A stretch of 64,000 nt of DNA from a virus, in the IMG/VR virus record IMGVR_UViG_3300027770_003399, positions 1 through 64,000 of that record. One strand, given 5' to 3'. Below the pieces are notes generated by a model. It saw only the letters and a list, made by a program, of their open reading frames with translations, did no database searches and was not told the DNA's origin. A program made the translations under genes and the position numbers. Positions 1-59,348 of the stretch are shown piece after piece. Each line of letters starts with the position of its first letter. Position 1 is the first letter of the stretch.

Positions 1-1061
1 TCAAGAATAGACGACCCATTGTGTTGTAATGAGTTTAATTTATCAAATAAGTAAGCTACTTGTTCAGAATGATGTTTATTAATTTTAGCAATACTTTCCT
101 GCTTAATAATATCATTGCCGTGGTGGCTTAATTCATGGTGGCCCTCTTTAACTTCTATTTTAGGATAGGGTCTATTGCTTCCTTCATCAGCTAGTACCAG
201 CGAAACCACTCTGGTAGAATCTGTTAAAAGGGCCAATCCTATAAGATCAATCAAAATCTTACAGTGGTCATCAAAAAATTCAGGAATATCAGAATATAAT
301 TCTCTTTGGCCAGATAATTCTTTGGGCTTAGACTCTTCCATTTCAATACGTCTTTCAATATCTCTAACACTATTGATATACTCTTCTAGCTTACGTTTAT
401 CTGAGCCTGAGAGGTCTTTATTTAAAAGATCCACCTCCCGACTAACCCCATCTAAAATACTCTTTTTATAAAGAATTCGCTCTTTACTTTGTGGAGTATT
501 TCCACCATAAATTCTTTCAAATATACTTCGTGGATTGTTATCTTTGGGCAACGGGGAGGTTGCACTATTCCAAGATATTGTGGATGAATAAGCACAACTA
601 TAACCACTATCACAATTACCAGACTGTTTACCAGACTCACACCCTAATTCTAAAGATCCAAATCTTGTTATAGACCTATAATGTTTAGCTGCTATTTGAT
701 CAGCAGAAATTCCCCCACTAATATTTTTACCATCAGTTTTTTTAATCTGAACACCAGTTAAATAAGTACTCATAGATCTTGCGTGATCTCCACCCCCATC
801 ACCATTAGCTCTTGCTTTTGTTTGAGCAAGGCCAGAAAGAATTAAAATCTTATCTTTATAATTATTAAAGGGTTGTAGAGTTGGTGGTAACTCATTTAAA
901 ACCCCAACATCTTTAGGGGTCCAACTATTCATATTCATACCATTAGGACTAAATACAAATACTAATCTTTTTTTATTTTCAATAATATCTCCCAAAGACT
1001 CTAATAATGGTAGTCCTAATAATGATCCTGATCCAACTATAAATTTTCTTCTATTAATCAT
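1..1061 (-). CDS. DUF1552 family protein, Tat-like N-terminus, cut by window edge
   Basis: I translated this by hand: the frame opens with ATG at 1061 and is still open at the window edge, giving 353 codons. Full members are usually about 430-460 aa, so the C-terminus is missing. It begins MINRRKF followed by a Gly/Ser/Leu-rich stretch ending LPLLESLG, which resembles a twin-arginine export signal. Family hallmarks follow in the right order: FSPNGMNMNSW near residue 37, GGGDHARSMSTYLTG near 89, GNCDSGYSCAYSSTISW near 150, DSTRVVSLVLADEGSNR near 285 and EGHHELSHH near 309. DUF1552 is known mainly from Planctomycetes and some myxobacteria; its biochemical role is not established. The start overlaps the stop of the upstream sulfotransferase-like gene (ATGA), so it is the last visible gene of the late fibre operon. 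Recognition is firm; a function in the phage is unknown. Confidence 0.93.
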   Translation of the reverse strand, partial: MINRRKFIVGSGSLLGLPLLESLGDIIENKKRLVFVFSPNGMNMNSWTPKDVGVLNELPPTLQPFNNYKDKILILSGLAQTKARANGDGGGDHARSMSTYLTGVQIKKTDGKNISGGISADQIAAKHYRSITRFGSLELGCESGKQSGNCDSGYSCAYSSTISWNSATSPLPKDNNPRSIFERIYGGNTPQSKERILYKKSILDGVSREVDLLNKDLSGSDKRKLEEYINSVRDIERRIEMEESKPKELSGQRELYSDIPEFFDDHCKILIDLIGLALLTDSTRVVSLVLADEGSNRPYPKIEVKEGHHELSHHGNDIIKQESIAKINKHHSEQVAYLFDKLNSLQHNGSSIL

Positions 1062-1570
1062 AAAGATTCCCACAATTCTATGTCTTCTTTTAAAAGACCC
1101 CTAATAATTTCTAATTCTGCCCCAGATAATTCTGGCTTATTTTCAGGATTTGATGGAGAGATATGTTCTACATTACCATAAATACCAAGAAATTCAAACA
1201 TTGATTGAAATCCATTCTCAAACTTAAAATGCACACACCTATTATTAATTAGATTCATACCATAAAGAGTCTCATATGATCCATTTTGCAAAGAGTCTAT
1301 TAGCATAGAAACAGATAGATTCTTTTTTGAACATAAAGACCGTAATCTTTCTATGGGGTTTCTTACCATTACTCCAACATTATATTCTTGGTCTAGAGTT
1401 GTAACAGATAAAAATGTTGTTGGGTGGCGACCACTAGTGTCTTGTTGATATTCAATAAATTTATCTGGATAAAAATCCCTAAGTAAACAATGGGCTATTG
1501 AGTGACTACCACTACGAGTTACCATAGCTAATTTATTATTATTTGGAGCTTGATATAGTACTGTTATCAT
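1058..1570 (-). CDS. Small sulfotransferase-like protein
   Basis: 170 aa. The N-terminus carries VTRSGSHSIAH (about residues 18-28), which fits the 5'-phosphosulfate-binding loop of PAPS-dependent sulfotransferases. GVMVRNPIERLRS (about 66-78) fits the 3'-phosphate-binding arginine/serine motif. The protein is shorter than cellular enzymes (250-300 aa) and similar in size to other phage sulfotransferase-like proteins. It overlaps the glycine-rich fibre gene upstream (4 bp) and the DUF1552 gene downstream (ATGA), so it is translated with tail-fibre genes. A role in modifying fibre or host surface glycans is inference. The motif match is moderate and activity is unproven. Confidence 0.7.
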   Translation of the reverse strand: MITVLYQAPNNNKLAMVTRSGSHSIAHCLLRDFYPDKFIEYQQDTSGRHPTTFLSVTTLDQEYNVGVMVRNPIERLRSLCSKKNLSVSMLIDSLQNGSYETLYGMNLINNRCVHFKFENGFQSMFEFLGIYGNVEHISPSNPENKPELSGAELEIIRGLLKEDIELWESL

Positions 1571-3072
1571 GTGAAATATAGGACTAATGCCCCATTGCCT
1601 CCGGGAGTTGTAAAAGTATCATAAGCTCCTCTGCCGCCATATCCAGCAGTTTTAGTTAAGGCGCTATTATATTTATTAACATATCCTGCTGATCCAAAAG
1701 CTGCTGTTGCTCCGCAAGTTTCTGTTGTGCTTACTCCAGCTAAAGTTAGGGCTGCGAATAATCCACTAATATCTGTAGCTGGTTTTCTTCCACAAGCAGT
1801 AGTCGTAGCAGAATCTCCACCAACAGCTCCTCCCGGACCACCATAAGCTCCAGATCCTCCGTTTGCTCCACCATCTCCTCCACTATAGCCTCCTGCATCT
1901 GCTAAGGGGTAGACGGAATTATTGCCGTTTCCTCCTGTGATAGTTACTGAGCTATATGTTGCTGTTGATTTTGTTGAAAGGGTACTAGTGTTTATTGCTC
2001 CTACTCCTAGAGCATAAGAGATAGATGCACCAGATACAGACCATGTTTTATACGCACAACCTCCACCATAACTTAAGCTTCCAGGACTACATCCTCCACC
2101 TCCAACGACCCAAGCTTTCATAGTGGTGGCCCCAGCAGGAATAGAGTAGCTTGTGCCAGAAGTTAATAAAACCGCTTGTGGGGTAAATGACACAGGAGTA
2201 AGATATCTAATAATAACAATTCCAGATCCTCCAGCACCACCAGTTCCATTAGTTCTTTCTCCTCCACCACCACCACCTCCAGTATTTGCTGCTGCTGCTA
2301 ATGCACTACCAGATCCAACCCCAGCAGTTCCTCCTCCAGATCCTCCAGCTCCAGGTGTTCCTCCTGCATATGTAGATCCTCCTCCTCCTCCACAATAAGT
2401 TGTTGATATTCCACTAATGCTGCTAGCTGTTCCAGTTCCACCAGCTCCACCAGTAGTGGTTGTTCCGTTTCCTCCCGCACTAGTAGATCCTCCTCCTCCA
2501 CCAGAACCATAATTTCCAGATGTACCTGCTGTTCCTCCATTTTTTCCTTGTCCAACAGTGCCAACTCCGCCAACATTAGAGCCATAACAGGCTCCTCCTC
2601 CAGAAGCTTTTGTACCTAAAGACGCTTGAGTAGGAGGAGTTGTTGGATAGTTGTACCAACTAGCACCTCCTTGGCCTCCTAAACTAGTAATACTGCTAAA
2701 TATAGAACTAGCTCCATTATTTCCCTGAGCAGTAGTAGCTATTCCTCCTAATCCCACAGTAACGGGATATGTTCCATTAGTAACAGCAAATCCAGTTCCT
2801 GTTTGAAATCCTCCTGCTCCTCCACCACCACCATGATAAGTTCCTCCTCCTGAGCCTCCTCCTCCTATAACTAAATATTCAACTGATAAAGATTGCAAAG
2901 CAATAAAATTACTACCAGATGATAAAAATGTATGAACCGTATATAATCCATCATAAGTTATGGTTCCTCCTGTTGCCAAAGATGCATGAGTCCATATTTT
3001 AAGAGTTGATGATGTTCCACTCCCTATTTTTAATAATCCTCCTGTAGTACGACCTATTTTAAATGTTGTCAT
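1567..3072 (-). CDS. Glycine-rich tail fibre/adhesin
   Basis: 501 aa, dominated by glycine. After a short N-terminal segment (KIGRTTGGLLKIGSGTSS) come two glycine-rich domains, each opening with a V(V/I)GGGG-type strand: EYLVIGGGGSGGGTYHGGGG near residue 65 and MKAWVVGGGGCSPGSLSYGG near 325. The long Gly/Ser/Thr stretches with periodic aromatic residues match the glycine-rich domains found at the tips of phage tail fibres. It overlaps the chaperone gene upstream and the sulfotransferase-like gene downstream by 4 bp each. Most likely a receptor-binding tip or accessory fibre. The family is recognisable; the receptor is not predictable. Confidence 0.85.
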   Translation of the reverse strand: MTTFKIGRTTGGLLKIGSGTSSTLKIWTHASLATGGTITYDGLYTVHTFLSSGSNFIALQSLSVEYLVIGGGGSGGGTYHGGGGGAGGFQTGTGFAVTNGTYPVTVGLGGIATTAQGNNGASSIFSSITSLGGQGGASWYNYPTTPPTQASLGTKASGGGACYGSNVGGVGTVGQGKNGGTAGTSGNYGSGGGGGSTSAGGNGTTTTGGAGGTGTASSISGISTTYCGGGGGSTYAGGTPGAGGSGGGTAGVGSGSALAAAANTGGGGGGGERTNGTGGAGGSGIVIIRYLTPVSFTPQAVLLTSGTSYSIPAGATTMKAWVVGGGGCSPGSLSYGGGCAYKTWSVSGASISYALGVGAINTSTLSTKSTATYSSVTITGGNGNNSVYPLADAGGYSGGDGGANGGSGAYGGPGGAVGGDSATTTACGRKPATDISGLFAALTLAGVSTTETCGATAAFGSAGYVNKYNSALTKTAGYGGRGAYDTFTTPGGNGALVLYFT

Positions 3073-3407
3073 GGTTCAATAGGCCATTCTATATTAGATG
3101 GATCATTTTGCAGATTAGGAAGATCTCTAAGATTTTGTCTATAAATTATCCAATCTTCTTTATTATTTCCAACATCTGGTAAAACTCTCCAGTCGCATTT
3201 AGATAATAAAAGATCTCTTTCTGCTCGAACTGCTACCCAAAGCTTTTCGATAGGCCAGTTTAAAATCAAAGAGTCTATCTGAACCTGTTGGTCTGGAGTT
3301 GGTTGGTCATCTTTATAATCTATTCTAAATTCATTATTTTCAAGATCAGCTATGCCATGTATTGGTATAATATTATTAATTTTTGTATGGAGTATATTTA
3401 TTAACAT
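3069..3407 (-). CDS. Tail fibre assembly chaperone-like protein
   Basis: 112 aa. The C-terminal half reads RAERDLLLSKCDW, then a variable spacer, then W-x2-YRQNLRDLP. This is the signature of the phage tail assembly chaperone family that sits beside fibre genes. The N-terminus (HTKINNIIPIHGI) is not recognisable. It lies between the large repeat fibre (7 bp overlap) and the glycine-rich fibre (4 bp overlap), the usual place for a chaperone that helps trimerise or attach fibres. The family call is good; which fibre it serves is unknown. Confidence 0.8.
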   Translation of the reverse strand: MLINILHTKINNIIPIHGIADLENNEFRIDYKDDQPTPDQQVQIDSLILNWPIEKLWVAVRAERDLLLSKCDWRVLPDVGNNKEDWIIYRQNLRDLPNLQNDPSNIEWPIEP

Positions 3408-5875
3408 AAGAATAATCCTTGTTCCATGTTGACGTTTGTAAAACTAGTATTAGCAGATATTCCTTTTTCTAAAGATTGTATATAGTGATATCCAATTTGA
3501 GGATCAAAAGTAGCTGATGTGCTAAAAGTTCTATAATCTGTAGTGCTTGTTTTTGTTAAAATTAGATTTGTGGGAGTAGTAATACTATCAAGAGCTAGGG
3601 CTATATTTCCACATGTAAAAGAACTATTAAGATTTACACTAATAGCATCTTCTGCGAGTCCCGTAACAAACTCAAACCTTCCTTCTCCAGGTGTGGTATT
3701 AGAGTTAAAAGCTCTCCAAGTAGCAGTAGCATATGAATGAATTGAATATTGCCCAGCATAGATAGCATGAGGCACCCTATTATTATAATTCCATACAAAT
3801 CTCCTTTTTTTACTATCTTCGGTTGTTGTTGATGATGTTGTTCTTAATGTTCCTACATATCTATATGATTTATCACTAGTTTTAACATAAACTCCATCTT
3901 GTAAAGATATTGCTGTTGCTCGTGTAGTATCACTAGCCCAAATATTAATACTTAAAGCCATCTCATTAGGAGTACCAATATAATTTATAAATAAATCATA
4001 ATTAGCATCAGCAGTAACAGCAGGAGTATCAAGACGAACGGTAGAAACATTAAGACCTCCAGCAGAATTGGAGATTGAATATGGAACCCAAACAGAATTA
4101 GTTGTATCATACAAACCAATATAACCATGTGTAAAATGGTAATATCTAATAATAATATTCCCTGTACGATCAGCATCTGGAATTATTCCTCCTCCTAGAC
4201 TACTAGCTTGAACAGAAATTCTCCCTCCAGCTAGTCTACTAGCAAATAAAGAATCATAAGCTTGAACATTAGTTCCTATAGCTAATCCAAGAGTTGTTCG
4301 AGATGTACTAGCATCAGCATCGTCAACTAAGCTTCGTGCAAAAGTTGTTATAGCTCCTGTTGTATAAACATCATTAGCTGTAGCATAAAGATAACTACCA
4401 GAAGCTGTTGTTAATCCAGCAATACTGAGTAATCCAGCATCATATGCTTGAACATTAGTTCCTATGACTAATCCACTAGTATTAATTGTTGCTGTGTCAG
4501 TACCACTATTATATGAAAGAACAATACCTGTTCCAGCAGTAAGAGCAGCAGTAACAAATGACTCAACTCCTCCAGACGATGCTAATAAAGACCTGCCGTA
4601 CTCAGTATAGATACCAGTTGTATAAACATCATTAGCTGTTGTATAGAGATAACTGCCAGAAACTGTTGTTAATGCAGCAATACTAGTTAACCCAGCATCA
4701 TAAGCTTGAACATTAGTTCCAATAGTTAAGCTAAGAGAAGCAGCAGTTTGATCTCCAGTATTTGTTCCGCTAGACGTTCCAGAAAAAGTTCCACTTTGAG
4801 TTGCTAAAGTTCCCAATCCTAATGTTGTTCGACATGTACTAGCATCAGCATCGTCAACTAAGCTTCGTCCAAAAGAAGTAATGACTCCTGTTGTATAAAC
4901 ATCATTAGCTGTTGTATAAATATACCTATCTGCTGCTGTTGTTAATGCAGCAATACTAAGTAATCCAGCATCATATGCTTGAACATCTGTTCCAATAGCT
5001 AATCCTAATGTTGTTCGAGATGTACTAGCATCAGCATCATCAACTAAGCTTCGTCCAAAAGAAGTAATGACTCCTGTTGTATAAACATCATTAGCTGTAG
5101 CATAAATATAATTACCCGACTCTGTTGTTAATCCAGCAATACTTGTTAACCCAGCATCATTAGCTTGAGCATTAGTCCCGATGGTTAAACCAAGAGAAGC
5201 AGCAGTCTGATCTCCAGTATTTGTTCCACTAGACGTTCCAGAAAAAGTTCCACTTTGAGTAGCTAAGGTCCCCAACCCTAATGTTGTTCGAGATGTACTA
5301 GCATCAGCATCATCAACTAAGCTTCGTCCAAAAGAAGTAATGACTCCTGTTGTATAAACATCATTAGCTGTAGCATAAATATAATTACCCGACTCTGTTG
5401 TTAATCCAGCAATACTTGTTAACCCAGCATCATTAGCTTGAGCATTAGTCCCGATGGTTAAACCAAGAGAAGCAGCAGTCTGATCTCCAGTATTTGTTCC
5501 ACTAGACGTTCCAGAAAAAGTTCCACTTTGAGTAGCTAAGGTCCCCAACCCTAATGTTGTTCGTGCTGTACTAGCATCAGCATCATCAACTAAACTTCTT
5601 CCAAAAGTTGTAATAGTTCCTGTTGTGTAAACATCATTAGCTGTAGCATAAAGATAACTACCAGAAGCTGTTGTTAATGAAGCAATACTAAGTAAACCAG
5701 CATCTCCAACCCCCACATTACTACTCAAACTAGTCCAAGTTGAAGTTCCATCTCCAATTTTTAGCAGATTATTAGTAGTATCAAAACCCGGTTCGCCACT
5801 AGCTAATACTGGATTAGTATTAGACCACTGAGTTGCTGACCCTCTTCTAACTTGTATTTGATTGGTTCTAGCCAT
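3401..5875 (-). CDS. Large repetitive tail fibre 3 (824 aa)
   Basis: Residues 1-55 (MARTNQIQVRRGSATQW, then GEPGFDTTNNLLKIGDGTS) form the Mtd-N-like attachment domain found on many phage fibres. Residues 55 to about 540 are tandem modules with recurring words QAYDAGL-SIA-LTT, YATANDVYTTG, FGRSLVDDADAS-RTTLGL and GTNTGDQTAASL. Two modules are nearly identical in DNA with a 273-bp period (about 5011-5565). The C-terminal head (from about residue 560) contains DTTNSVWVPYS, DGVYVKTSDKSYRYVGT and a WNYNNR segment, a fibre tip domain shared with the next gene. One of three paralogous fibres in a row. The receptor is unknown. Confidence 0.9.
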   Translation of the reverse strand: MARTNQIQVRRGSATQWSNTNPVLASGEPGFDTTNNLLKIGDGTSTWTSLSSNVGVGDAGLLSIASLTTASGSYLYATANDVYTTGTITTFGRSLVDDADASTARTTLGLGTLATQSGTFSGTSSGTNTGDQTAASLGLTIGTNAQANDAGLTSIAGLTTESGNYIYATANDVYTTGVITSFGRSLVDDADASTSRTTLGLGTLATQSGTFSGTSSGTNTGDQTAASLGLTIGTNAQANDAGLTSIAGLTTESGNYIYATANDVYTTGVITSFGRSLVDDADASTSRTTLGLAIGTDVQAYDAGLLSIAALTTAADRYIYTTANDVYTTGVITSFGRSLVDDADASTCRTTLGLGTLATQSGTFSGTSSGTNTGDQTAASLSLTIGTNVQAYDAGLTSIAALTTVSGSYLYTTANDVYTTGIYTEYGRSLLASSGGVESFVTAALTAGTGIVLSYNSGTDTATINTSGLVIGTNVQAYDAGLLSIAGLTTASGSYLYATANDVYTTGAITTFARSLVDDADASTSRTTLGLAIGTNVQAYDSLFASRLAGGRISVQASSLGGGIIPDADRTGNIIIRYYHFTHGYIGLYDTTNSVWVPYSISNSAGGLNVSTVRLDTPAVTADANYDLFINYIGTPNEMALSINIWASDTTRATAISLQDGVYVKTSDKSYRYVGTLRTTSSTTTEDSKKRRFVWNYNNRVPHAIYAGQYSIHSYATATWRAFNSNTTPGEGRFEFVTGLAEDAISVNLNSSFTCGNIALALDSITTPTNLILTKTSTTDYRTFSTSATFDPQIGYHYIQSLEKGISANTSFTNVNMEQGLFLC

Positions 5876-5894
5876 TATAATTCCATATTAAATA

Positions 5895-8303
5895 TTAACA
5901 TAATAGAGAGCTTTCTATAGCAAATGAGGTAAACGATGAACTAGCAGTAGTTCCATATTCCACCCCTTGTACAAAATGATATCCTATCTGTTGAGTAAAA
6001 GCTCCAACAGCACTAGCTGCGCTACTATAGGTGGTTGAGGCTTCGACTAATATAGAACTATTAGAGGCTGTACTTGTTGTGTCTAATCCTAATCCGACAT
6101 TTCCATATACTATCTGACCATAGTACATAAGAGATATAGAGTCTTCATTGAAGCCAGAAACAAATTCTATTCTGGTACTACCAAGAGTTGTATTATTATT
6201 CCATGATCTCCAAGTAGCTGTAGAATAAACATGAACACTAGATAGATAGCAATAAACTTTTTTATATCTTCTGTTATTATAGTTCCATAACAATCTTTGA
6301 GCAGCAGTATCTACTGTTGTGGTTGTTGTTACTGTTCTAAAAGTTCCTAAATAACGATATGATTTATCACTAGTTTTAACATAAACTCCATCTTGTAATG
6401 ATATTGCTGTTGCTCGTGCAGTATCACTTGTCCAAATACTAGATGCTAATGTTAGGGTTCCAGTATTGCTATACATAAAAACGTCATAATTATATCCACT
6501 GCTTAATGTTCCAAGAGCTAACGATCTTTGAGTAAAGCTGTATGGAACCCACACTAAATTTGTAGTATCATACAGTCCTATTGAAGAATTTACATATGGA
6601 GTATAATAAATAGTTGTTTTAGCGGATTGATCGGTGGTGCTTATTGGGACGCCACTTTCAAGAGTTAGTCTACCTCCAGCAAATGCACTAGCAAGCACAG
6701 AGTTATATGCTAGAACATCAGTTCCTATTACTAATCCTAATGTTGTTCGAGATGTACTAGAATCAGCATCGTCAACTAAGCTTCGTCCAAAAGCTGTTAT
6801 AACTCCGGTTGTATAAACATCACTAGCTGTAGCATAAATATAATTACCCGACCCTGTTGTTAGTCCAGCAATACTCTGTAAACCCGCATCATATGCTTGA
6901 ATATTGGTTCCTATTACTAATCCACTAGTATTAATTGTTGCTGTATCAGTAACACTATCATACGAAAGAACGATACCTGTTCCAGCAGTAAGAGTAGTGG
7001 TGATAAGCGACTCAACCCCGGATGATGCTAATAAAGACCTACCATACGCCGTAGAGGTACCTGTTGTATAAACATCATTAGCTGTAGCATAAAGATAACT
7101 ACCAGAAGCTGTTGTTAATGCAGCAATACTAGTTAATCCAGCATCGTAAGCTTGAGTATACGTTCCAATAGTTAAACTAAGAGAAGCAGCAGTCTGATCT
7201 CCAGTATTTGTTCCGCTAGAAGTTCCAGAAAAAGTTCCACTTTGAGTTGCTAAAGTACCCAATCCTAATGTTGTTCGTGCTGTACTAGCATCAGCATCGT
7301 CAACTAAGCTTCGTCCAAAAGTTGTTATAGCTCCTGTTGTATAAACATCATTAGCTGTAGTATAAATATATCTATCTGCTGCTGTTGTTAATCCAGCAAT
7401 ACTAAGTAATCCAGCATCATAAGCTTGAACATCTGTTCCAATAGCTAATCCAAGTGTTGTTCGAGATGTACTAGCATCAGCATCGTCAACTAAGCTTCGT
7501 CCAAAAGTTGTTATAGCTCCTGTTGTATAAACATCATTAGCTGTAGTATAAATATATCTATCTGCTGCTGTTGTTAATCCAGCAATACTAGTTAATCCAG
7601 CATCGTAAGCTTGAGTATACGTTCCAATAGTTAAACTAAGAGAAGCGGCAGTCTGATCTCCAGTATTTGTTCCGCTAGAAGTTCCAGAAAAAGTTCCACT
7701 TTGAGTTGCTAAAGTTCCCAATCCAAGAGTTGTTCGTGCTGTACTAGCATCAGCATCATCAACTAAGCTTCGTCCAAAAGTTGTTATAGCTCCTGTTGTA
7801 TAAACATCATTAGATGTTGTATAGATGTATCTGTCTGCTGCTGTTGTTAATCCAGCAATACTAGTTAGCCCAGCATCATAAGGTTGAATACCAAGAGAAA
7901 CTGAGGTCTGATCTCCAGTATTTGTTCCACTAGACGTTCCAGAAAAAGTTCCACTTTGAGTTGCTAAAGTTCCCAATCCTAATGTTGTTCGTGCTGTACT
8001 AGCATCAGCATCATCAACTAAGCTGCGACCAAAAGCTGTTATAACCCCCGTTGTATAAACATCATTAGCTGTAGCATAAAGATAACTACCAGAAACTGTT
8101 GTTAATCCAGCAATACTAAGTAAACCAGCATCTCCAACCCCCACATTACTACTCAAGCTACTCCACGCTGAAGTTCCATCTCCAACTTTTAACAGACTAT
8201 TGGTAGTATCAAAACCCGGTTCTCCACTAGCTAATACCGGATTAGTATTAGACCACTGAGTCGCCGTTCCTCTTCTAACTTGTATTTGATTGGTCCTGGC
8301 CAT
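5895..8303 (-). CDS. Large repetitive tail fibre 2 (802 aa)
   Basis: Paralogue of the 3401-5875 gene with the same plan. It has an N-terminal attachment domain (MARTNQIQVRRGTATQW, KVGDGTS), a long shaft of YTTGAITTFGRSLVDDADAS and GTLATQSGTFSGTSSGTNTG modules, and a C-terminal head with YYTPYVNSSIGLYDTT, DGVYVKTSDKSYRYLGT and LLWNYNNR. The shaft shares long near-identical DNA stretches with its neighbours while the head diverges, as expected where fibre heads adapt to receptors. It is separated from the next fibre by 19 bp and from the previous one by 53 bp. Confidence 0.9.
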   Translation of the reverse strand: MARTNQIQVRRGTATQWSNTNPVLASGEPGFDTTNSLLKVGDGTSAWSSLSSNVGVGDAGLLSIAGLTTVSGSYLYATANDVYTTGVITAFGRSLVDDADASTARTTLGLGTLATQSGTFSGTSSGTNTGDQTSVSLGIQPYDAGLTSIAGLTTAADRYIYTTSNDVYTTGAITTFGRSLVDDADASTARTTLGLGTLATQSGTFSGTSSGTNTGDQTAASLSLTIGTYTQAYDAGLTSIAGLTTAADRYIYTTANDVYTTGAITTFGRSLVDDADASTSRTTLGLAIGTDVQAYDAGLLSIAGLTTAADRYIYTTANDVYTTGAITTFGRSLVDDADASTARTTLGLGTLATQSGTFSGTSSGTNTGDQTAASLSLTIGTYTQAYDAGLTSIAALTTASGSYLYATANDVYTTGTSTAYGRSLLASSGVESLITTTLTAGTGIVLSYDSVTDTATINTSGLVIGTNIQAYDAGLQSIAGLTTGSGNYIYATASDVYTTGVITAFGRSLVDDADSSTSRTTLGLVIGTDVLAYNSVLASAFAGGRLTLESGVPISTTDQSAKTTIYYTPYVNSSIGLYDTTNLVWVPYSFTQRSLALGTLSSGYNYDVFMYSNTGTLTLASSIWTSDTARATAISLQDGVYVKTSDKSYRYLGTFRTVTTTTTVDTAAQRLLWNYNNRRYKKVYCYLSSVHVYSTATWRSWNNNTTLGSTRIEFVSGFNEDSISLMYYGQIVYGNVGLGLDTTSTASNSSILVEASTTYSSAASAVGAFTQQIGYHFVQGVEYGTTASSSFTSFAIESSLLC

Positions 8304-8356
8304 ATTTCTCCCTTATAGTCTATCTTATTATTATAATAATAGATAAATATCTAAAA

Positions 8357-10684
8357 TCAAGGAGACCCACCATCTAGAGTTCCCCATGTTGGAACTCCAG
8401 CAACAACTTGTAATATATATCCATTAGATCCAGCAGCTAATTCAGAACCCACACTACTAGCTCCAACCATCAGAGCATTGGAGGCTAATGCTATTTTACC
8501 AACTGTTATTCCAGCAGTACTATTAACATCAGCATTTAATATAGTACCATCTAATATCATGGTGCTAGTAACTTTACCACTTCCAATAGCAGTAACTCCA
8601 GCATTAGTAATAGTAACATCTCCAGTAACACCAACAGATGTTGCTACGTTTGAAGCATTTCCCACTAATATATTAGCACTAGTTAAAGATGCCAACTTAC
8701 TAAAAGCTATAGCAGCACTACTATTAATATCAGCATTTACAATAACATCATTAGCAATACTAGTAGCATTACCCACACTAGTTACATCCCCAGTAAGATT
8801 AGCATTAGTAGTAACAGTACTAGCATTTCCAGTTAGGGCTCCAATAAAAGTACCAGCAACAAAAGTTTCACTTCCAACAGTCCACCTATTATTAGTTTCA
8901 TCCCATATCAATGAAACATTGGCATCTGTACCTCTTTCAATCTCAATACCAGCATCTTGCGTAGCTGAATATGTTTCATCGCTATTAAGAGTAATAATAG
9001 AATCCCCAATATTAACAGTATTACTATTTACTGTTGTTGTGGTACCATTAACTGTTAAATCTCCGCTTAGAATAAGCCCCGAAGCATTTACTGTTCCTGT
9101 AAAAGTTGGACTAGCAATAGGAGCAACATCTGTTCCTATAACCAATCCAAGTGTTGTCCTTTGTGCGGATGCGTCAGCATCGTCTAATAGGGCTTTGCCC
9201 GCAGTTGTTAAATCAAACACAGCAGCTGTGCCCGCTCCTGTAAATTGAATACCCTTATTAGCAGCAGACGTTAAGCCAGCGATAGCAGCAAGTTCAGCAT
9301 CATAGGCCTGAACATCAGTACCAATAGTTAATCCTAACGAAGTTTTTAATGTTGCTGCACTTTCAACAACAAAGTTAGTTCCATTGCCGATAATTACTCC
9401 GTTGTCTGTTGGACTTAATCCAGCAACGTCAGCTAACTGAGCATCATAAGCCTGAACATCTGTTCCTATAGCCAACCCTAATGTTGTTCTTTGTGCGGAT
9501 GCGTCAGCATCGTCTAATAGGGCTTTGCCCGCAGTTGTTAAATCAAATACAGCAGCTGTGCCTGCTCCTGTAAATTGGATGCCTTTATTAGCAGCAGACG
9601 TTAAACCCGCAATTGCAGCAAGTTCAGCGTCATAAGCCTGAACATCAGTACCAATAGTTAATCCTAACGAAGTTTTTAATGTTGCTGCACTTTCAACAAC
9701 AAAGTTAGTTCCATTGCCGATAATTACTCCGTTGTCTGTTGGACTTAATCCAGCAACGTCAGCTAACTGAGCATCATAAGCCTGAACATCTGTTCCTATA
9801 ACTAACCCAAGAGTTGTTCGACCTGCACTAGCATCAGTATCGTCAACTAAACTTCGCCCAAAAGCTGTTATAACTCCTGTTGTATAAGTATCATTAGCCG
9901 TAGCATATAGATAGCTACCAGAAGCCGTTGTTAATCCAGCAATGCTAGTTAAACCAGCATCATAAGCCTGAGTATACGTTCCAACAGTTAAATTAAGAGA
10001 AGCAGCAGTTGGTAGAGTCTGATCTCCAGTATTTGTTCCGCTAGACGTTCCAGAAAAAGTTCCATCTTGAGTAGCTAAGGTCCCCAAGCCGAGAGTTGTT
10101 CGACCCGCACTAGCATTAGCATCGTCAACTAAACTTCGTCCAAAAGCTGTTATAACCCCCGTTGTATAAACATCGCTAGCTGTAGCATAAAGATAATTGT
10201 CCGACCCTGTTGTTAATCCAGCGATGCTCTGTAACCCAGCATCATAAGCTTGAATGTTAGTTCCAATGCCACTAACAGCAATAGTCAACTGATGACCACT
10301 ATAAGTCAAATCAATATTAGACCCCTCTATGAGTCCACTCCCCACAATATCCATAACTTGATCAGAGCTAACTGTTCCAGCAGTTACTCTAGCATCAACA
10401 GCAGTATTAAAATCAGTAATACGACTGGATGGAATTCCAGTAACACTAATAGCTATCGTGGATCCATTAGTCCCCTTAGACAGTCCAATACCACTAACAC
10501 CCGTAAAATCAGTAGGTAGGGTAGCAGCATATGTTAAACTATTCCAAGCAGTTGTTCCGTCTCCAATCTTATACCTACCAGTTGTTGTATCATATCCCCA
10601 CTCTCCAGCAGACAAAACAATAGTACCAGCAGCCCACTCAACAGTTGTTCCACGACGAATCTGAATTAATGTTTTAACTGCCAT
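8357..10684 (-). CDS. Large repetitive tail fibre 1 (775 aa)
   Basis: Begins with the same attachment domain (IQIRRGTTVEWAAGT, GEWGYDTTTGRYKIGDGTTA). The shaft mixes the LTTASGSYLYATANDTYTTG module with a second module type (SPTDNGVIIGNGTNFVVESA, NKGIQFTGAGTAAVF) repeated at a 330-bp DNA period. From about residue 520 it switches to a SGDLTVNGTTTTVNSNTVN segment and a LTGDVTSVGNATSIANDVIV segment typical of phage fibre shafts. Unlike its paralogues it lacks the VYVKTSDKSYRY head and ends GTLDGGSP. It could be a proximal shaft part of a multi-subunit fibre; that is inference. Confidence 0.88.
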   Translation of the reverse strand: MAVKTLIQIRRGTTVEWAAGTIVLSAGEWGYDTTTGRYKIGDGTTAWNSLTYAATLPTDFTGVSGIGLSKGTNGSTIAISVTGIPSSRITDFNTAVDARVTAGTVSSDQVMDIVGSGLIEGSNIDLTYSGHQLTIAVSGIGTNIQAYDAGLQSIAGLTTGSDNYLYATASDVYTTGVITAFGRSLVDDANASAGRTTLGLGTLATQDGTFSGTSSGTNTGDQTLPTAASLNLTVGTYTQAYDAGLTSIAGLTTASGSYLYATANDTYTTGVITAFGRSLVDDTDASAGRTTLGLVIGTDVQAYDAQLADVAGLSPTDNGVIIGNGTNFVVESAATLKTSLGLTIGTDVQAYDAELAAIAGLTSAANKGIQFTGAGTAAVFDLTTAGKALLDDADASAQRTTLGLAIGTDVQAYDAQLADVAGLSPTDNGVIIGNGTNFVVESAATLKTSLGLTIGTDVQAYDAELAAIAGLTSAANKGIQFTGAGTAAVFDLTTAGKALLDDADASAQRTTLGLVIGTDVAPIASPTFTGTVNASGLILSGDLTVNGTTTTVNSNTVNIGDSIITLNSDETYSATQDAGIEIERGTDANVSLIWDETNNRWTVGSETFVAGTFIGALTGNASTVTTNANLTGDVTSVGNATSIANDVIVNADINSSAAIAFSKLASLTSANILVGNASNVATSVGVTGDVTITNAGVTAIGSGKVTSTMILDGTILNADVNSTAGITVGKIALASNALMVGASSVGSELAAGSNGYILQVVAGVPTWGTLDGGSP

Positions 10685-13264: not shown

Positions 13265-14275
13265 TTAGAGTGAACCTATGATAACTCTACGATTATCTAG
13301 TACGGCGAAGCCCAGTTCTGCCCATCCGTAGAATCCAGCTCTCTTCTGACGATGAAGAGTATCATCTTCAAAAATCTGAACTTCTTGGCGAATTGGCATG
13401 ATGAAACTATCTCTCTTGCGCATATCTAGACCTACCACAACTTCAGTATCTCCACCGGGCATACTTGCAGCCAAGGAGGTAGTGAAGAATGCTTGGTATT
13501 CTTGACCAACACCAAGTTCATCTAGATCATGAAGATTGACTCCGAATACACGATTTAGACTACCGTCTGCTGCTGTATAAATCTCTCGACGAGTAATTTC
13601 GTCAATTTGATCAATACCCCAGTTTCGAATATCTTCCATCGCTTCTGGAGATACAAAAAGATCAGTTAGCATTCCACGATTAGCACTGGTACTATTACCG
13701 CCGCCGTTTCGTCTCATGACTGTTTTCATCAAACTTACCAATCTCTTGGTAAATTGACTAGCAGAAGCATCAGAATCATAAACAACGATATTTCGATCAA
13801 CACCAGCAGCTAACAAAGTATGCCAGCCGTCATCATTCATCTTCTTAACAAAGGAGCCCTCTAAAGCTTCCATTGCTCTGCCAACAACATCCCACCTAGC
13901 ATCTCTAGCATACTTTAGCAAGTAGTCGATAGATGAACCAATGTCGTAGGTTGGAACCATAACATAGTCACCTTCAACATGACGCTCTGGAATATATCCG
14001 TGATTAGGCAAAGTATATGCAACAAAGTCTTTTTCGGTACCTGGTGCAAGAAAATCTAATGGAAATTCTGGAGTAGCACTTTGAGCAAGCTTGATAGGCT
14101 CAAATATGCCGTCTAAAATATCTCCACTTAGTAAACCCTGACGAAGAGGCAATTCTAGTGCTTTTGCAAATTCTGCATTAGCGGCTAATGCTACTTCTCT
14201 ATTTGGCGAACCAGAACGCATCAAAAGATCTGTTAATTCTGGTGTTGGCTGAAATCTCTCTGTTTTAGCTGACAT
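13265..14275 (-). CDS. Major capsid protein
   Basis: 336 aa. The length, the place directly after decoration and protease/scaffold genes, and the strong terminator behind it fit an HK97-fold capsid protein. Features include an N-terminal helix region (LTDLLMRSGSPNREVALAANA), EGDYVMVPTYDIG (about 100-115), a long central helix region RWDVVGRAMEALEGSF, and a C-terminal IMPIRQEVQIFEDDTLHRQK / GFYGWAELGFAVLDNRRVI strand region typical of P-domain ends. Codon use is more GC-rich than its neighbours, as is common for very highly expressed structural genes. The call is by context and fold-type pattern; confidence is high. Confidence 0.9.
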   Translation of the reverse strand: MSAKTERFQPTPELTDLLMRSGSPNREVALAANAEFAKALELPLRQGLLSGDILDGIFEPIKLAQSATPEFPLDFLAPGTEKDFVAYTLPNHGYIPERHVEGDYVMVPTYDIGSSIDYLLKYARDARWDVVGRAMEALEGSFVKKMNDDGWHTLLAAGVDRNIVVYDSDASASQFTKRLVSLMKTVMRRNGGGNSTSANRGMLTDLFVSPEAMEDIRNWGIDQIDEITRREIYTAADGSLNRVFGVNLHDLDELGVGQEYQAFFTTSLAASMPGGDTEVVVGLDMRKRDSFIMPIRQEVQIFEDDTLHRQKRAGFYGWAELGFAVLDNRRVIIGSL

Positions 14276-14307
14276 GTTTTATCTCTCCCTGTGATTTAAA
14301 AAAAAAC

Positions 14308-14760
14308 TTATAGATTAACTGATACTTTTGCATAACCGTCTGCGTCTGTAGCACTTAAGAATTGACCAATTTGAACAGCATTAGTACTACTAGTACCTAT
14401 ATTGCCGTTTGCACCAACATAAGCCTTGGCTCCTGCACTTGGAGTGCCAGCAAGGAAATTAGTTGTAACCTGCCCATTTCTGAGTATTGTTACCTTTCCT
14501 CCTACCTGGACCTCATCTTTGTGCCAATTGATATGTTGTTTTGTTAGGTCAATATTTACAACATCATTTAGCAGAATTCCTACGGGTAATGAACCAGATG
14601 CTACTGAAGCATAAGCAACAACAGCATTGGCATCATCCATAGATACTCCCAACCCGGAAGTAGCGACATTAACACTAACCACACCACCGCGTGTTGCAGT
14701 TGTATTCATGAAAAAAGAAACATCAGTCAATAGTTCAATACGATCAGATTTTAAGGCCAT
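14308..14760 (-). CDS. Head decoration/stabilisation protein
   Basis: 150 aa, beta-rich, without signal or membrane segment. Motifs such as TRGGVVSVNVATSG, GILLNDVVNID and VQVGGKVTILRNGQ resemble small capsid-associated proteins encoded just before the capsid gene. It is separated from the capsid gene by 32 bp and from the protease by 28 bp. The call rests mainly on context and composition. Confidence 0.72.
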   Translation of the reverse strand: MALKSDRIELLTDVSFFMNTTATRGGVVSVNVATSGLGVSMDDANAVVAYASVASGSLPVGILLNDVVNIDLTKQHINWHKDEVQVGGKVTILRNGQVTTNFLAGTPSAGAKAYVGANGNIGTSSTNAVQIGQFLSATDADGYAKVSVNL

Positions 14761-14788
14761 TGTAATTTCTCCAGTAAATATTTAGGGA

Positions 14789-16333
14789 CTATTTATTTTT
14801 CTTGTTACCTAGTTTGCTGTACACGAATTCTACCAAAGCTGCTCTTGTGGAATTTAATGAAGACTCAGCTGATTCTTCACTAACGCTTAAGCTTACAGAG
14901 TCTTCTACTTCAACGTCTTCAAGGACAGATATATCGCTATTGTCTTCAGAAGCTTTCTTCTTAGGATCTTCCTTCTTAGGATCTTCCTTCTTGGTGCCAT
15001 CTTTTTCTTTCTTGTACTTTTCTAGCCAAGGAGGCAGACCAGCAGCAAAAAGAAAAGTCATAGCATCAAAAGCTTCATCTTCCATAGCATCAAATTTTTC
15101 CAATATGCTAGCAACAATTTCAGCATCTAGACCTTTGTCTACTAATGATGCTTTTCTAAGCATGTTCTTTTCTTTCTTCATCATAGCGGCTTCAGCAGCT
15201 CGATATGTCTCAATGATACTATTGGCAGTATCTAGTTCTAATCTTATAGCCTGTATAGCAGCTTCAGAATCGTCTTCCATTTTATCCATTTCTTCTTGCA
15301 TCTTTTTGATCTGCTCTTTGGTCTTTTTTGCAGCCTGAGCCATTTCGTCTTCCATTTCAAGATTGGCCGATGCGAGACCAGCAATTTTGGCTTGAATGCT
15401 GTCAGATGCTTCTTTGGTATAGACAACATCATCACTCACTGTTAGCTCTATTTCTTCAGCGACGGTTACCTTCTCTTTTGAACTCATAATAGTATTCTCC
15501 GAATTAGTGTTGGCCTGAGTAATAAATACACCTGATTTTATAATTTCTTCTTTTTTTTCCAAAGTACAACTATTGGATTTTTTGTTATCGGTCTCAGATA
15601 ATAAGTTCTTAGTAAATATTATACTATCCTGATTAGCTGGTCTGTCAACAAAACCCTTGCCAGAAAACGTTATATTTCGCAAGACTCTTCCAATTTTATA
15701 ATTTTCATGTTCACCAAGACCCCCATAAGACCGCAAATATTTGCTTAAATACGCAGTCTCATTATTTCGAGATAATATTTTATATGTTCCAGTATTTTTT
15801 TCTATTAGACCATAATCAAACCCCTTAAAGAAACATTCCATACTAACATACTTAGTACCGTCTTGTATTTCAGCTATTAGTTTTTCGGATCTGTCTTTAA
15901 GTTCTGGATTAGTAAAAGATTTATATATTACTGATCCTGTTAATATATGATATTTTTCTGGTAGATCTTCCACTTCGGTATTTTCATCTATAAGAATACC
16001 TTCCTCTGTAATAGGCCAATTTGATGTGATGTGTCCTATTATTATATTCTCATCATGTTCTAAATTAGTGGGTTTGTCTTCTGGAGTATTTTTTGCTATC
16101 CAGACTTCTTTTTTATCAAAGATATCGTCATTTTTATTCCAACTAGAACTAACAAGTATAGACTGCACATAATACAGATCATCATCACTGAAAGATGCTA
16201 GACTATGAATATTTTTTTTAATATCTTCAGATTTATGCTCTATTGGCTCTGCTATACAAGCATAAGATATTGAGGCAGAAGAGGATAACTGGGCCTCTAA
16301 CCCATCTATTTTTTCTTGGTCAAATATATGCAT
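14789..16333 (-). CDS. Prohead protease fused to scaffold
   Basis: 514 aa in two parts. Residues 1 to about 240 look like a phage prohead protease. A histidine region (NLEHDENIIIGHITSNWPI, about 94-112) and a serine region (TKYVSMECFFKGFDYG, about 168-183) could supply the catalytic pair. GKGFVDRPANQDSIIF closes the domain. Residues 260-514 are strongly helical, acidic and coiled coil (EDEMAQAAKKTKEQIKKMQE), with a KEDPKKEDPKK linker and a Ser-rich tail, as in scaffolds that are cleaved during maturation. It lies between portal and decoration genes. Assignment of the catalytic residues is inference. Confidence 0.78.
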   Translation of the reverse strand: MHIFDQEKIDGLEAQLSSSASISYACIAEPIEHKSEDIKKNIHSLASFSDDDLYYVQSILVSSSWNKNDDIFDKKEVWIAKNTPEDKPTNLEHDENIIIGHITSNWPITEEGILIDENTEVEDLPEKYHILTGSVIYKSFTNPELKDRSEKLIAEIQDGTKYVSMECFFKGFDYGLIEKNTGTYKILSRNNETAYLSKYLRSYGGLGEHENYKIGRVLRNITFSGKGFVDRPANQDSIIFTKNLLSETDNKKSNSCTLEKKEEIIKSGVFITQANTNSENTIMSSKEKVTVAEEIELTVSDDVVYTKEASDSIQAKIAGLASANLEMEDEMAQAAKKTKEQIKKMQEEMDKMEDDSEAAIQAIRLELDTANSIIETYRAAEAAMMKKEKNMLRKASLVDKGLDAEIVASILEKFDAMEDEAFDAMTFLFAAGLPPWLEKYKKEKDGTKKEDPKKEDPKKKASEDNSDISVLEDVEVEDSVSLSVSEESAESSLNSTRAALVEFVYSKLGNKKNK

Positions 16334-16351
16334 AATGATTAACCCTTATGT

Positions 16352-18556
16352 TTAATTACCTGCCTCATCATACACCAGACAATAGAAAGAAGCTTTTGCT
16401 TGCTCATTCTCACTAACGGATAGTTGTCTACCCAGATCTCCCTGAATAGCTTTTAGCCAAATATAAAATTTAGAGACTATCTTGCTATTAGTCTCCATGT
16501 TGTGAAAAGATTCCACTACTTGAGAACTCCCAATGGTGCAGTAAGGGATAAGATTAAGAAGAATATTGGTTTTAACCTGTTCTAGCTCTTGGGACTCTGC
16601 ACTAGTTAAACTTCTTAAATTTTTCTTATTATAGAATTCTAACATTAGTGGGTTCATAATTTCCCCTATTTTATTCTGAGCTGATGTCGCCCACATTAAC
16701 ATCTTGGCCCCTGTTCTGGGTATAAAGGTCTTGGGCGCTCGCTTTTTCTTATCTTTTGATAGTTTAGGCCTTCCGTCGCCAGATTCTTTCGGCAACGAAT
16801 CCGATGACGGATCGTTTGCCAACTTCGTTGGTTGTGGTGCTGTTGCTGCTTTCATCTCAAGGGATGTTTTTTCTCCGGGTTTCTTTTTGGGAAGATCAAG
16901 TCCTACTTGACTAGGAGCCACTATCCCCAATTGCAGAGATATTTTTTTCAAAGAGTTCTCAAACTGAGGATCAAACCAAGGCCCAGCTTTATCTACCATT
17001 CTACTTGTTTTTCTGTCTCGGAATTCTCTGTTCAGTCTGTATTTCTCCATATCTGGATCAAATCCAAATCTTGTTTGTATTAGCTCATCAGATACTAAGT
17101 TTCTATCAGCTAGCTGAATGAGTAAAGCCTTTTCTGTGTCTTCATTGGATAAATCCATTCTGTCAAACTCAATTTTTCCAGGATATTGAAATCCCATAGC
17201 TTGTTGGACTAATTCTAGTTCCTTTTCCCAGAAACTAACTAGTATGTCTCTGCCGTACTGAAGTCTTTGGGTCAGTGTTTTAAGGCTTATAAAATTGTTT
17301 GTTGTTCCACTAGCTCCGAAAGTACCTGTTAAGGTTGGTGGAATACCTAGACCAGCATAAATAGCGTTCAAGTGGGGAATGTATTTTCCTTCGCCCAAGA
17401 ATTGATGAACATTAGTTTTTGATTCAAGAAGCTCTATATCTGGACCCCACACAAGATCCATTGTTCCTCCCCCAACATTATTTCCAAGTATTTGAGCTAA
17501 CTTCGCCGTTGCTGCTTTTGTAGGGGCTATTTTGTGTTCTAGGCTCCCTAGTTTAAATATTCTAATATTTGATATAGCTCCATCTAAAGCTGCCATATCC
17601 GCGAGTTTCAGCTTTTCTATAACATTGATATCATCCATGATAGCATACATCATAGGAAATGCCCAAGCCTGCCAATCATCTTTCTTATAATGAAAAACCA
17701 TTGTCTTTTCAGGATCCAAAGGATAGGATTTCTTCTTTTGGGCCGCTTCGACAATTTCTGCTGGCAGACCACTAACTACCAAGGCTTCTGCCTCATTCTT
17801 TGGAGCATTTATGATTCTTCTAAGACTAGCTGGTAGAATAAGTTGATACTGCTTTTTTTCTACAAATGAAGATAATGGTCCTCCAGCAACTTCAACAAAT
17901 ACAGGATCCATAAAAGTATATCGCCAAGGTATTTCTCTTTTTTCCAACTTAATACTATTTAAATCAGCAATATCAAAATTAGGAGCAGAAGCAGATCTAT
18001 ATAGTTTTTCAGCAACCTTTACACTAATTTTCCCAGTTTGTTTGTTAATTACAACATTTCCCACCTTATATAAATTATTTAAAAATCTCTCACTCCTATC
18101 TTTCCCCCCAATCTTCTTGAACCACTGTCTATAAAATCTCTCTATCCTTTTATTCTTATGAACAATCCTGACACCCTGAGCAGCAAAATCTCCCATAAGA
18201 TCAATAACATTTTTAACCAAGCCGATTCTCTGATAAATATCTTCTGCTCTGCGCAGGATAGCCTTAATATTTCCTCTAGGAACAGCTTCGTCTGGTCTGA
18301 AAAAATCGTAATCGTCCCTTGTTAATCCTGGTCTTCCCGAAGTTCCAGTGCCGTCAAGATTAGAGTAATCAAAACCGTGTCGTCTTGCTGCTGAACCTGT
18401 TGATTTTTGTATGCCAACATACTCCTCCAAAGACTCTGAGGAAGTATGAAGGGCAATCTTCTTGCTTTCCAAGTCTTCGCCCCATGTAACATAGGCTTCT
18501 TGGCCGATTATGGTAGAATCTTGGTTTGCTTCGCTTTTTGGATATTTTTTAGTCAT
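16352..18556 (-). CDS. Portal protein
   Basis: 734 aa, located directly after the large terminase and before the protease, the canonical portal position. The segment RRAEDIYQRIGLVKNVIDLM / FAAQGVRIVHKNKRI near the N-terminus resembles the start of phage portals. A central IPHLNAIYAGLGIPPTLTG region and the helical ISLKTLTQRLQYGRDILVSF are typical of the portal stem and crown. The C-terminus after about residue 560 is Lys/Pro-rich and probably less ordered. The call rests on size, position and local similarity. Confidence 0.88.
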   Translation of the reverse strand: MTKKYPKSEANQDSTIIGQEAYVTWGEDLESKKIALHTSSESLEEYVGIQKSTGSAARRHGFDYSNLDGTGTSGRPGLTRDDYDFFRPDEAVPRGNIKAILRRAEDIYQRIGLVKNVIDLMGDFAAQGVRIVHKNKRIERFYRQWFKKIGGKDRSERFLNNLYKVGNVVINKQTGKISVKVAEKLYRSASAPNFDIADLNSIKLEKREIPWRYTFMDPVFVEVAGGPLSSFVEKKQYQLILPASLRRIINAPKNEAEALVVSGLPAEIVEAAQKKKSYPLDPEKTMVFHYKKDDWQAWAFPMMYAIMDDINVIEKLKLADMAALDGAISNIRIFKLGSLEHKIAPTKAATAKLAQILGNNVGGGTMDLVWGPDIELLESKTNVHQFLGEGKYIPHLNAIYAGLGIPPTLTGTFGASGTTNNFISLKTLTQRLQYGRDILVSFWEKELELVQQAMGFQYPGKIEFDRMDLSNEDTEKALLIQLADRNLVSDELIQTRFGFDPDMEKYRLNREFRDRKTSRMVDKAGPWFDPQFENSLKKISLQLGIVAPSQVGLDLPKKKPGEKTSLEMKAATAPQPTKLANDPSSDSLPKESGDGRPKLSKDKKKRAPKTFIPRTGAKMLMWATSAQNKIGEIMNPLMLEFYNKKNLRSLTSAESQELEQVKTNILLNLIPYCTIGSSQVVESFHNMETNSKIVSKFYIWLKAIQGDLGRQLSVSENEQAKASFYCLVYDEAGN

Positions 18557-18606
18557 AGGTATTCCAATTACAATAGGAATGCAATCAATATGTAACTATA
18601 CACTAT

Positions 18607-53267: not shown

Positions 53268-53693
53268 ATGAGAGTAATAGCAATCCTTGTTTTATTGTTT
53301 TGTCTTTTCTCTTTTTTAGAAAATAACAAAGCATCAGAATATGATGATGTATTTGACGCTGCTAAAAATACCAAAGGGATCGTACTATTATATTTTACTG
53401 ATGAAAGTTGTTCTTGGTGTTATAAATTAAAGCCTATATTTAAAACCCCAGAAGTACAAAAGATTATAAGTAAATACTTCTTTGTAGAAATAGACATAAC
53501 AGATAATCCAGAATTATATAGTTTTTATAAGATTTCCTCTATACCAGCTTATATGTTGGTGGACGGTAACAAAAAGATTATTATTAGAGGAATGGGATAC
53601 AAGGACAAAACAAATTTTATAAATTGGTTACAAACTTATAAGAAAGAGGATACTAATGTCAGGAAAAGGATCAAATCCGCGACCAGTAAATAA
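53268..53693 (+). CDS. Secreted thioredoxin-like protein
   Basis: 141 aa. Signal peptide VIAILVLLFCLFSFLENNKA (residues 3-22). The thioredoxin fold has LLYFTDESCSWCYKLKPIF (active-site CSWC, about 41-59), then FFVEIDITDNPELYSFYKIS and the cis-Pro segment SSIPAYMLVDG. It would act in the periplasm on disulfides. Overlaps the next gene by 38 bp. Phage-encoded exported thioredoxins are uncommon; the target is unknown. Confidence 0.82.
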   Translation: MRVIAILVLLFCLFSFLENNKASEYDDVFDAAKNTKGIVLLYFTDESCSWCYKLKPIFKTPEVQKIISKYFFVEIDITDNPELYSFYKISSIPAYMLVDGNKKIIIRGMGYKDKTNFINWLQTYKKEDTNVRKRIKSATSK

Positions 53694-57861: not shown

Positions 57862-57937
57862 GGGGCGTAAGGTAAGCCGGTTGCATCCGTCACTCTTATA
57901 AGGTGATCATAGGTACGTTCAACTCGTACACGCCCTA
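57862..57937 (+). tRNA. tRNA-Ile-like (anticodon TAT), irregular D arm
   Basis: Acceptor GGGGCGT/ACGCCCT (one G-T), anticodon stem TCACT/GGTGA with loop CTTATAA, T stem GTACG/CGTAC with loop TTCAACT. The D stem keeps only two G-C pairs (GG/CC). It would read AUA, common in this AT-rich genome. The weak D arm lowers certainty. Confidence 0.72.
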
Positions 57938-57998
57938 TTTTATAGTTTTAGTGTATTCTTTTTTATATAGAAGATTACTTATTTTAAAAGGACATACC

Positions 57999-59243: not shown

Positions 59244-59277
59244 AAAACTAAAGTTTAGAAACCCATCAATCCGATAC

Positions 59278-59306
59278 TTGACAAGACGATTGATCTGTGG
59301 TAGAAT
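59278..59306 (+). promoter_or_regulatory. Promoter of the DNA ligase gene
   Basis: TTGACA 59278, 17-bp spacer AGACGATTGATCTGTGG, TAGAAT 59301. Confidence 0.83.
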
Positions 59307-59348
59307 GAGTTCTAGGAATAGAAGCATAGAAAAATTTGGAGAAGTATA

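What the first reader, a model, noticed from the sequence alone, without database searches (positions are those of the whole stretch)
1..1061. DUF1552 gene in the late tail-fibre operon of a phage
DUF1552 proteins are chromosomal, Tat-exported planctomycete proteins of unknown biochemistry. Here one is fused by ATGA coupling to fibre-region genes, so it should be made late, with virion proteins. It might be a virion component, an envelope modifier at exit, or an enzyme acting on host surface polymers.
Basis: partly seen in the sequence, partly recalled or inferred. Interest (0 to 1): 0.82.

Follow-up and report, generated by a model that had tools for sequence, protein, structure and literature searches.

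The report
Phage-borne planctomycete DUF1552 export enzyme
A large uncultured phage carries an intact gene for a secreted enzyme-like protein (DUF1552) otherwise known from planctomycetes and a few other bacteria; unrelated phages have taken this gene at least three times and always kept its export signal and putative active site, so phages probably use it to change the surface or periplasm of their hosts.

Summary
In detail: window 1-1061 (-) encodes a DUF1552 protein (PF07586, 314 bits). It overlaps the upstream gene by ATGA and lies inside the tail-fibre gene run. A second contig of the same phage (99.6% DNA identity) gives the complete 426-aa gene and the same junctions, so it is neither broken nor chimeric. 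It is not unique. An alignment-based scan found about 30 IMG/VR contigs with DUF1552 in unrelated phages (including contigs with T4-type tail-sheath and terminase genes); the tree requires at least three changes between host and phage. All 27 phage copies with an N-terminus keep the twin arginine, and all 29 keep the four HXXSHH-region histidines. The window phage also has three genes of the related family DUF1501, which is a core gene of its lineage (35 of 36 records; contigs up to 238 kb). Neither family was found in 50,697 isolated-phage records. Fold searches place both proteins in the alkaline phosphatase/sulfatase superfamily. The nearest phage relative has DUF1552 beside the DNA ligase, not among fibres, so 'virion component' is unlikely. 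Best reading: a Tat-exported hydrolase, captured from a PVC-type host, acting on envelope or surface glycans during infection. Substrate and host are unproven.

The parts
1..1061 (-). DUF1552 (PF07586, HXXSHH) gene, start ATG 1061, Tat-type N-terminus MINRRKFIVGSGSLLGLPLL; cut by the contig end, complete (426 aa) in L002
1058..1570 (-). 170-aa ORF of unknown function, overlaps DUF1552 by ATGA; a 31%-identical homologue lies in the fibre run of a related phage (G018)
   Evidence: no Pfam match
1567..3072 (-). glycine-rich-domain protein (PF21722)
3069..3407 (-). tail-fibre assembly chaperone (PF16778; phrog_4912)
3401..10684 (-). three large repeat-rich fibre proteins, 3401-5875, 5895-8303 and 8357-10684 (Mtd_N domain found in the two scanned, 3401-5875 and 8357-10684; the third has nearly the same N-terminal sequence)
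13265..20628 (-). structural anchor: major head protein (13265-14275), portal (16352-18556), terminase large subunit (18607-20628); shows that the contig is a tailed phage
57903..59243 (+). core DUF1501 gene (PF07394); likely start ATG 57999, Tat-type MNRRHFLSH; conserved through the phage lineage
59349..60677 (+). ATP-dependent DNA ligase; in L003 the DUF1552 gene sits between DUF1501 and this gene
53268..53693 (+). thioredoxin-like protein with an N-terminal hydrophobic segment; may belong to the exported set (inference)

Best explanation
The gene is a functional, phage-owned DUF1552 protein of the alkaline phosphatase/sulfatase superfamily, taken from a bacterium of the planctomycete type. 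It is made in the infected cell, exported folded through the host Tat system, and works in the periplasm or envelope as a probably metal-dependent hydrolase or transferase on surface glycans or glycolipids. The likeliest use is receptor or envelope remodelling (keeping further phages off and stopping progeny from rebinding), with its specificity travelling with the fibre cassette. Shown: the gene is intact, under purifying selection, captured several times, and keeps its export signal and conserved His/Asp/Asn residues. Inferred: export, fold-based chemistry, glycan substrate, use.
For: Complete 426-aa frame in a second assembly. Purifying selection against the L003 copy: NG86 dN 0.38, dS 1.41, though dS is near saturation. 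G+C 34%, phage-like, against 49-57% in the host DUF1552 loci measured. Phage copies scatter over the DUF1552 tree with at least 3 starred changes; the window/L003 pair is a 100/100 clade. Twin arginine kept in 27/27 phage copies with an N-terminus; H93, H308, H309, H313, H314, H370, D121 and C150/C156 in 29/29. Foldseek best hits are choline sulfatase and an alkaline-phosphatase-superfamily protein for DUF1552 (best E 3.7e-5) and sulfatases and LtaS for DUF1501 (best E 1.7e-6). The two families are homologous to each other (hhalign 96.8%, E 2.5e-10). Glycan theme: fibre-run slots in relatives hold a GT25-sulfotransferase fusion (G005) and an RgpF-type protein (G016); in many contigs of the large marine clade an RmlA-type nucleotidyltransferase lies a short way upstream of DUF1552.
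Against: No activity is known to me for any DUF1552 or DUF1501 protein, and no homologue is solved. The DUF1552 model is weak (mean pLDDT 66, TM 0.3-0.4). The sulfatase signature [CS]xPxR is absent from the phage copies, so sulfatase chemistry is not shown. The PSCyt3 cytochrome that adjoins DUF1552 in the host locus examined is missing from this phage. The L003 copy is outside the fibre run, so a link to fibre specificity is not general. The host is inferred only from gene relatives.
Confidence: 0.55

Rival explanations
1. Auxiliary metabolism: the phage boosts a host periplasmic system (PSCyt cytochrome plus DUF1501/DUF1552) that draws energy, phosphorus or sulfur from carbohydrates; DUF1552 acts with the host's own PSCyt3 proteins.
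For: Two phages carry a PSCyt1-PSCyt2-PSD1 protein in one co-directional run with two or three DUF1501 genes. The host DUF1552 gene examined adjoins a PSCyt3/PSD2-5/CBM60 cytochrome gene. He et al. proposed a role for PSCyt genes in carbohydrate metabolism (PMC5615132).
Against: The window phage has no cytochrome among its ORFs in the 122 kb held and places DUF1552 among fibre genes; the marine DUF1552 phages have no DUF1501 in the 13 records searched.
Confidence: 0.3
2. Virion component: a tail-associated enzyme carried by the particle.
For: Position among fibre genes with an ATGA overlap.
Against: Tat signals kept in 27/27 phage copies; the nearest relative keeps the gene next to DNA ligase; in the large marine clade contigs inspected it is on the strand opposite to the tail and terminase genes.
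Confidence: 0.06
3. Exit or lysis factor that weakens the envelope at release.
For: Late-type position and envelope location (inference).
Against: No similarity to lysis families found (PHROGs no match); the lineage has members without the gene.
Confidence: 0.07
4. Contig chimera or host DNA mis-sorted into a virus record.
For: The gene sits at a contig end.
Against: A second assembly has the same junctions on both sides; a second phage with 56% identity carries it; phage-like G+C.
Confidence: 0.01

Closest known systems
PF07586 HXXSHH/DUF1552 (chromosomal copies in Planctomycetota, Verrucomicrobiota, Acidobacteriota, gammaproteobacterial MAGs)
   Same: Full-length profile match, Tat-type start, all invariant His/Asp/Asn/Cys residues
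   Different: In a phage, 49% identity at best to a planctomycete copy in the genomes sampled, no PSCyt3 partner, fibre-gene context
PF07394 DUF1501
   Same: Homologous over nearly the whole length (hhalign 96.8%), same superfamily fold, Tat-type start
   Different: A separate family; core gene of this phage lineage, whereas DUF1552 is a rare accessory there
Alkaline phosphatase/sulfatase superfamily (choline sulfatase, LtaS, YejM, MCR-1 domain)
   Same: Predicted fold
   Different: No sulfatase [CS]xPxR signature in the phage copies; conserved His-rich motif instead
Phage receptor-modifying or superinfection-exclusion genes (for example O-antigen-modifying genes of temperate phages; from general knowledge)
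   Same: Proposed logic: an exported phage enzyme alters the surface that fibres recognise
   Different: Different protein family; phenotype not shown here

Membership tests
PF07586 DUF1552 (HXXSHH) | Profile score above the curated cut-off over the whole domain | tested here: met
   313.9 bits against 30, profile 1-307 of 307
PF07586 DUF1552 (HXXSHH) | H-x-x-S-H-H motif | tested here: met
   HELSHH at residues 309-314; H309, H313 and H314 in all 70 sequences, S312 in 69
PF07586 DUF1552 (HXXSHH) | Twin-arginine N-terminus followed by a hydrophobic stretch | tested here: met
   MINRRKFIVGSGSLLGLPLL; RR in 27/27 phage and 41/41 host rows; export itself untested
PF07586 DUF1552 (HXXSHH) | Neighbouring PSCyt3/PSD cytochrome gene (usual in hosts, not strictly defining) | tested here: not met
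   No heme-type CxxCH protein among ORFs of the 122 kb (the one CxxCH hit is a homing endonuclease); host example has it
Alkaline phosphatase superfamily | Shared fold | tested here: inconclusive
   Foldseek best hits all in the superfamily, E 3.7e-5, but pLDDT 66 and TM 0.35-0.40
Alkaline phosphatase superfamily | Type I sulfatase signature [CS]xPxR | tested here: not met
   Absent from every phage DUF1552 row
Alkaline phosphatase superfamily | Metal-dependent ester hydrolysis | not testable with these tools
   Needs biochemistry
Virion tail protein | Present in particles | not testable with these tools
   Needs proteomics; Tat signal and gene position in relatives argue against

The most novel reading that the evidence does not exclude
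Phages of planctomycete-type hosts have repeatedly turned these alkaline-phosphatase-like families (DUF1501, DUF1552, with PSCyt cytochromes in some) into an exported toolkit for rewriting the host surface; the fibre-linked DUF1552 erases or masks the very receptor that the neighbouring fibres recognise.
Probability: 0.3. Interest if true: 0.82.

Novelty: new variant of a known kind. Interest (0 to 1): 0.64.

Why it matters
DUF1501 reaches over a hundred copies in single planctomycete genomes (133 in one), and He et al. write that nothing is known about the function of the associated PSCyt genes (PMC5615132). Phages that keep such genes under purifying selection, with the export signal always intact, offer a small genetic system for asking what these proteins do. 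The DUF1501 core gene also marks a widespread phage lineage, with contigs up to 238 kb, for which no close relative was found among 50,697 isolated-phage records.

Tried and rejected
Chimera or broken frame: rejected through a second contig of the same phage. 'Unique to this phage': rejected; narrow single-protein and two-sequence scans found only two contigs, but an 11-sequence alignment found about 30. Weak DUF1552 profile hits in marine DUF1501 phages (about 20 bits) overlap DUF1501 genes by coordinates and were not counted as DUF1552. The 170-aa neighbour looked sulfotransferase-like to me by eye; no Pfam, PHROGs or PDB support, so not claimed. Promoter and terminator scan near chance (42 against 41.1; 6 against 4.2), uninformative. 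Looking for the phage's terminase in 392 Planctomycetota genomes to fix the host gave only weak local matches. DUF1501 mention in a Pseudomonas phage paper is a weak hit on a 61-aa protein (PMC5418858). BFVD fold search gave nothing significant.

Full report
What is there. The window is the first 64 kb of a 122,120-base IMG/VR record. ORF 3-1061 on the minus strand matches PF07586 (DUF1552, HXXSHH) over the whole profile with 313.9 bits. Its ATG (1061-1059) overlaps the TGA (1060-1058) of a 170-aa ORF. Upstream on the same strand come a glycine-rich protein, a tail-fibre assembly chaperone and three large fibres (Mtd_N domain in the two scanned), then head, portal and terminase genes. So the contig is a tailed phage.

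Integrity. IMGVR_UViG_3300027754_004528 (L002) is the same phage in another record: 99.6% DNA identity over 5.4 kb, 0 of 1059 differences inside the gene, and a 273-base length difference in a fibre repeat, which argues for a separate population or assembly. It gives the complete protein of 426 aa. After 13 bases it continues with proteins carrying CBM, fn3 and laminin-G domains. The gene is therefore embedded in the fibre region on both sides.

Relatives in phages. A first scan found one further phage, L003 (56% identity), in which DUF1552 sits between a DUF1501 gene and DNA ligase. The window phage has the same DUF1501-ligase pair at 57903-60677 without DUF1552 between them, so the gene has moved. 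Scanning with an alignment that includes cellular copies returned 31 loci, most of them in a single clade. In that clade, several contigs (for example L266, L286) carry tail sheath, tail tube and terminase genes; in many of its contigs an RmlA-type nucleotidyltransferase lies a short way before DUF1552. L261 lies next to head-maturation protease and major head genes. None of 13 such records has DUF1501. The window protein and its DUF1501 had no match in 50,697 isolated-phage records.

Phylogeny. With 41 cellular and 29 phage sequences, the window and L003 copies form a 100/100 clade, 25 others form a second, and L260 and L261 fall near Acidobacteriota and gammaproteobacterial copies. Starred branches force at least three changes between host and phage. 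Cellular diversity is far larger (160 of 392 Planctomycetota genomes have a match), so capture by phages is the natural direction (inference). Some long branches make exact placements uncertain.

Constraint. Every phage copy with an N-terminus has the twin arginine (27/27), and all 29 keep H93, H308, H309, H313, H314, H370, D121, C150, C156 and other invariant residues. dN/dS between the two lineage copies is about 0.27 with near-saturated dS. G+C of the gene is 34%, like the phage (35.5%), while the host DUF1552 loci measured have 49-57%. The gene is old in this lineage and selected as an exported protein.

The wider set. The record holds three DUF1501 genes: 57903-59243, 66133-67377 and 80126-81463; the last overlaps the start of a 628-aa protein with a weak VWA match. 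DUF1501 is present in 35 of 36 related records, one to four copies each. Twelve of the 36 have a terminase 52-100% identical to the window's, with contigs up to 238 kb. The DUF1501 tree needs at least five changes between host and phage. Two phages carry a PSCyt1-PSCyt2-PSD1 protein in one co-directional run with DUF1501 genes. DUF1552, by contrast, is present in only 3 of 49 records searched, which are two phages of this lineage.

Chemistry. No member of either family is solved. AlphaFold models (mean pLDDT 66 for DUF1552, 79 for DUF1501) match the alkaline phosphatase/sulfatase superfamily in Foldseek, with modest TM-scores. Profile comparison shows that the two families are homologous. The [CS]xPxR sulfatase signature is missing from the phage copies, so the reaction is open; a metal-dependent hydrolase or transferase is an inference.

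How it most likely works. Export through Tat places the protein in the periplasm or on the envelope of the infected cell. Genes in comparable fibre-run slots of relatives are glycan enzymes: a GT25-sulfotransferase fusion in G005 and an RgpF-type protein in G016; G018 has a homologue of the 170-aa ORF followed by an unassigned 196-aa ORF. I therefore favour surface-glycan remodelling tied to receptor use. Auxiliary metabolism is the main rival, because the host copy examined goes with a cytochrome and two phages took a cytochrome too. A virion role is unlikely for the reasons given.

Limits. The host was not shown; the terminase search in Planctomycetota gave only weak hits. Contigs are incomplete, so absences are provisional. 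Literature covered open-access papers only; no report of DUF1552 in phages was found there.

Noticed in passing
window 57903-59243; record positions 66133-67377 and 80126-81463 (L004): Three DUF1501 genes with Tat-type starts; the first is a core gene of a phage lineage with contigs up to 238 kb.
   Followed up: yes
L020 3579-11927 and L017 6013-13421: Phages with DUF1501, a 624-aa membrane-type protein and a PSCyt1-PSCyt2-PSD1 cytochrome protein in one co-directional run.
   Followed up: partly
window 3401-5875 compared with L002 3460-5661: Fibre protein differs by a 273-base in-frame repeat unit between two records of the same phage (824 against 733 aa).
   Followed up: no
record 98000-115900 (L005, L006): Long run of ORFs that look by eye like sugar-nucleotide and glycosyl-transfer genes; suggests extensive surface-glycan rewriting. 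No family search was run on them.
   Followed up: no
window 11440-13134: Homing-endonuclease-like gene between the fibres and the major head protein; two similar genes follow DUF1552 in L261.
   Followed up: no
L263 3512-4732: A contig with phage-type DUF1552 carries a full ammonium transporter (PF00909, 389 bits).
   Followed up: no
window 54311-55228; L004 8269-10893: UV-endonuclease UvdE and an RIIA-type lysis-inhibition protein.
   Followed up: no
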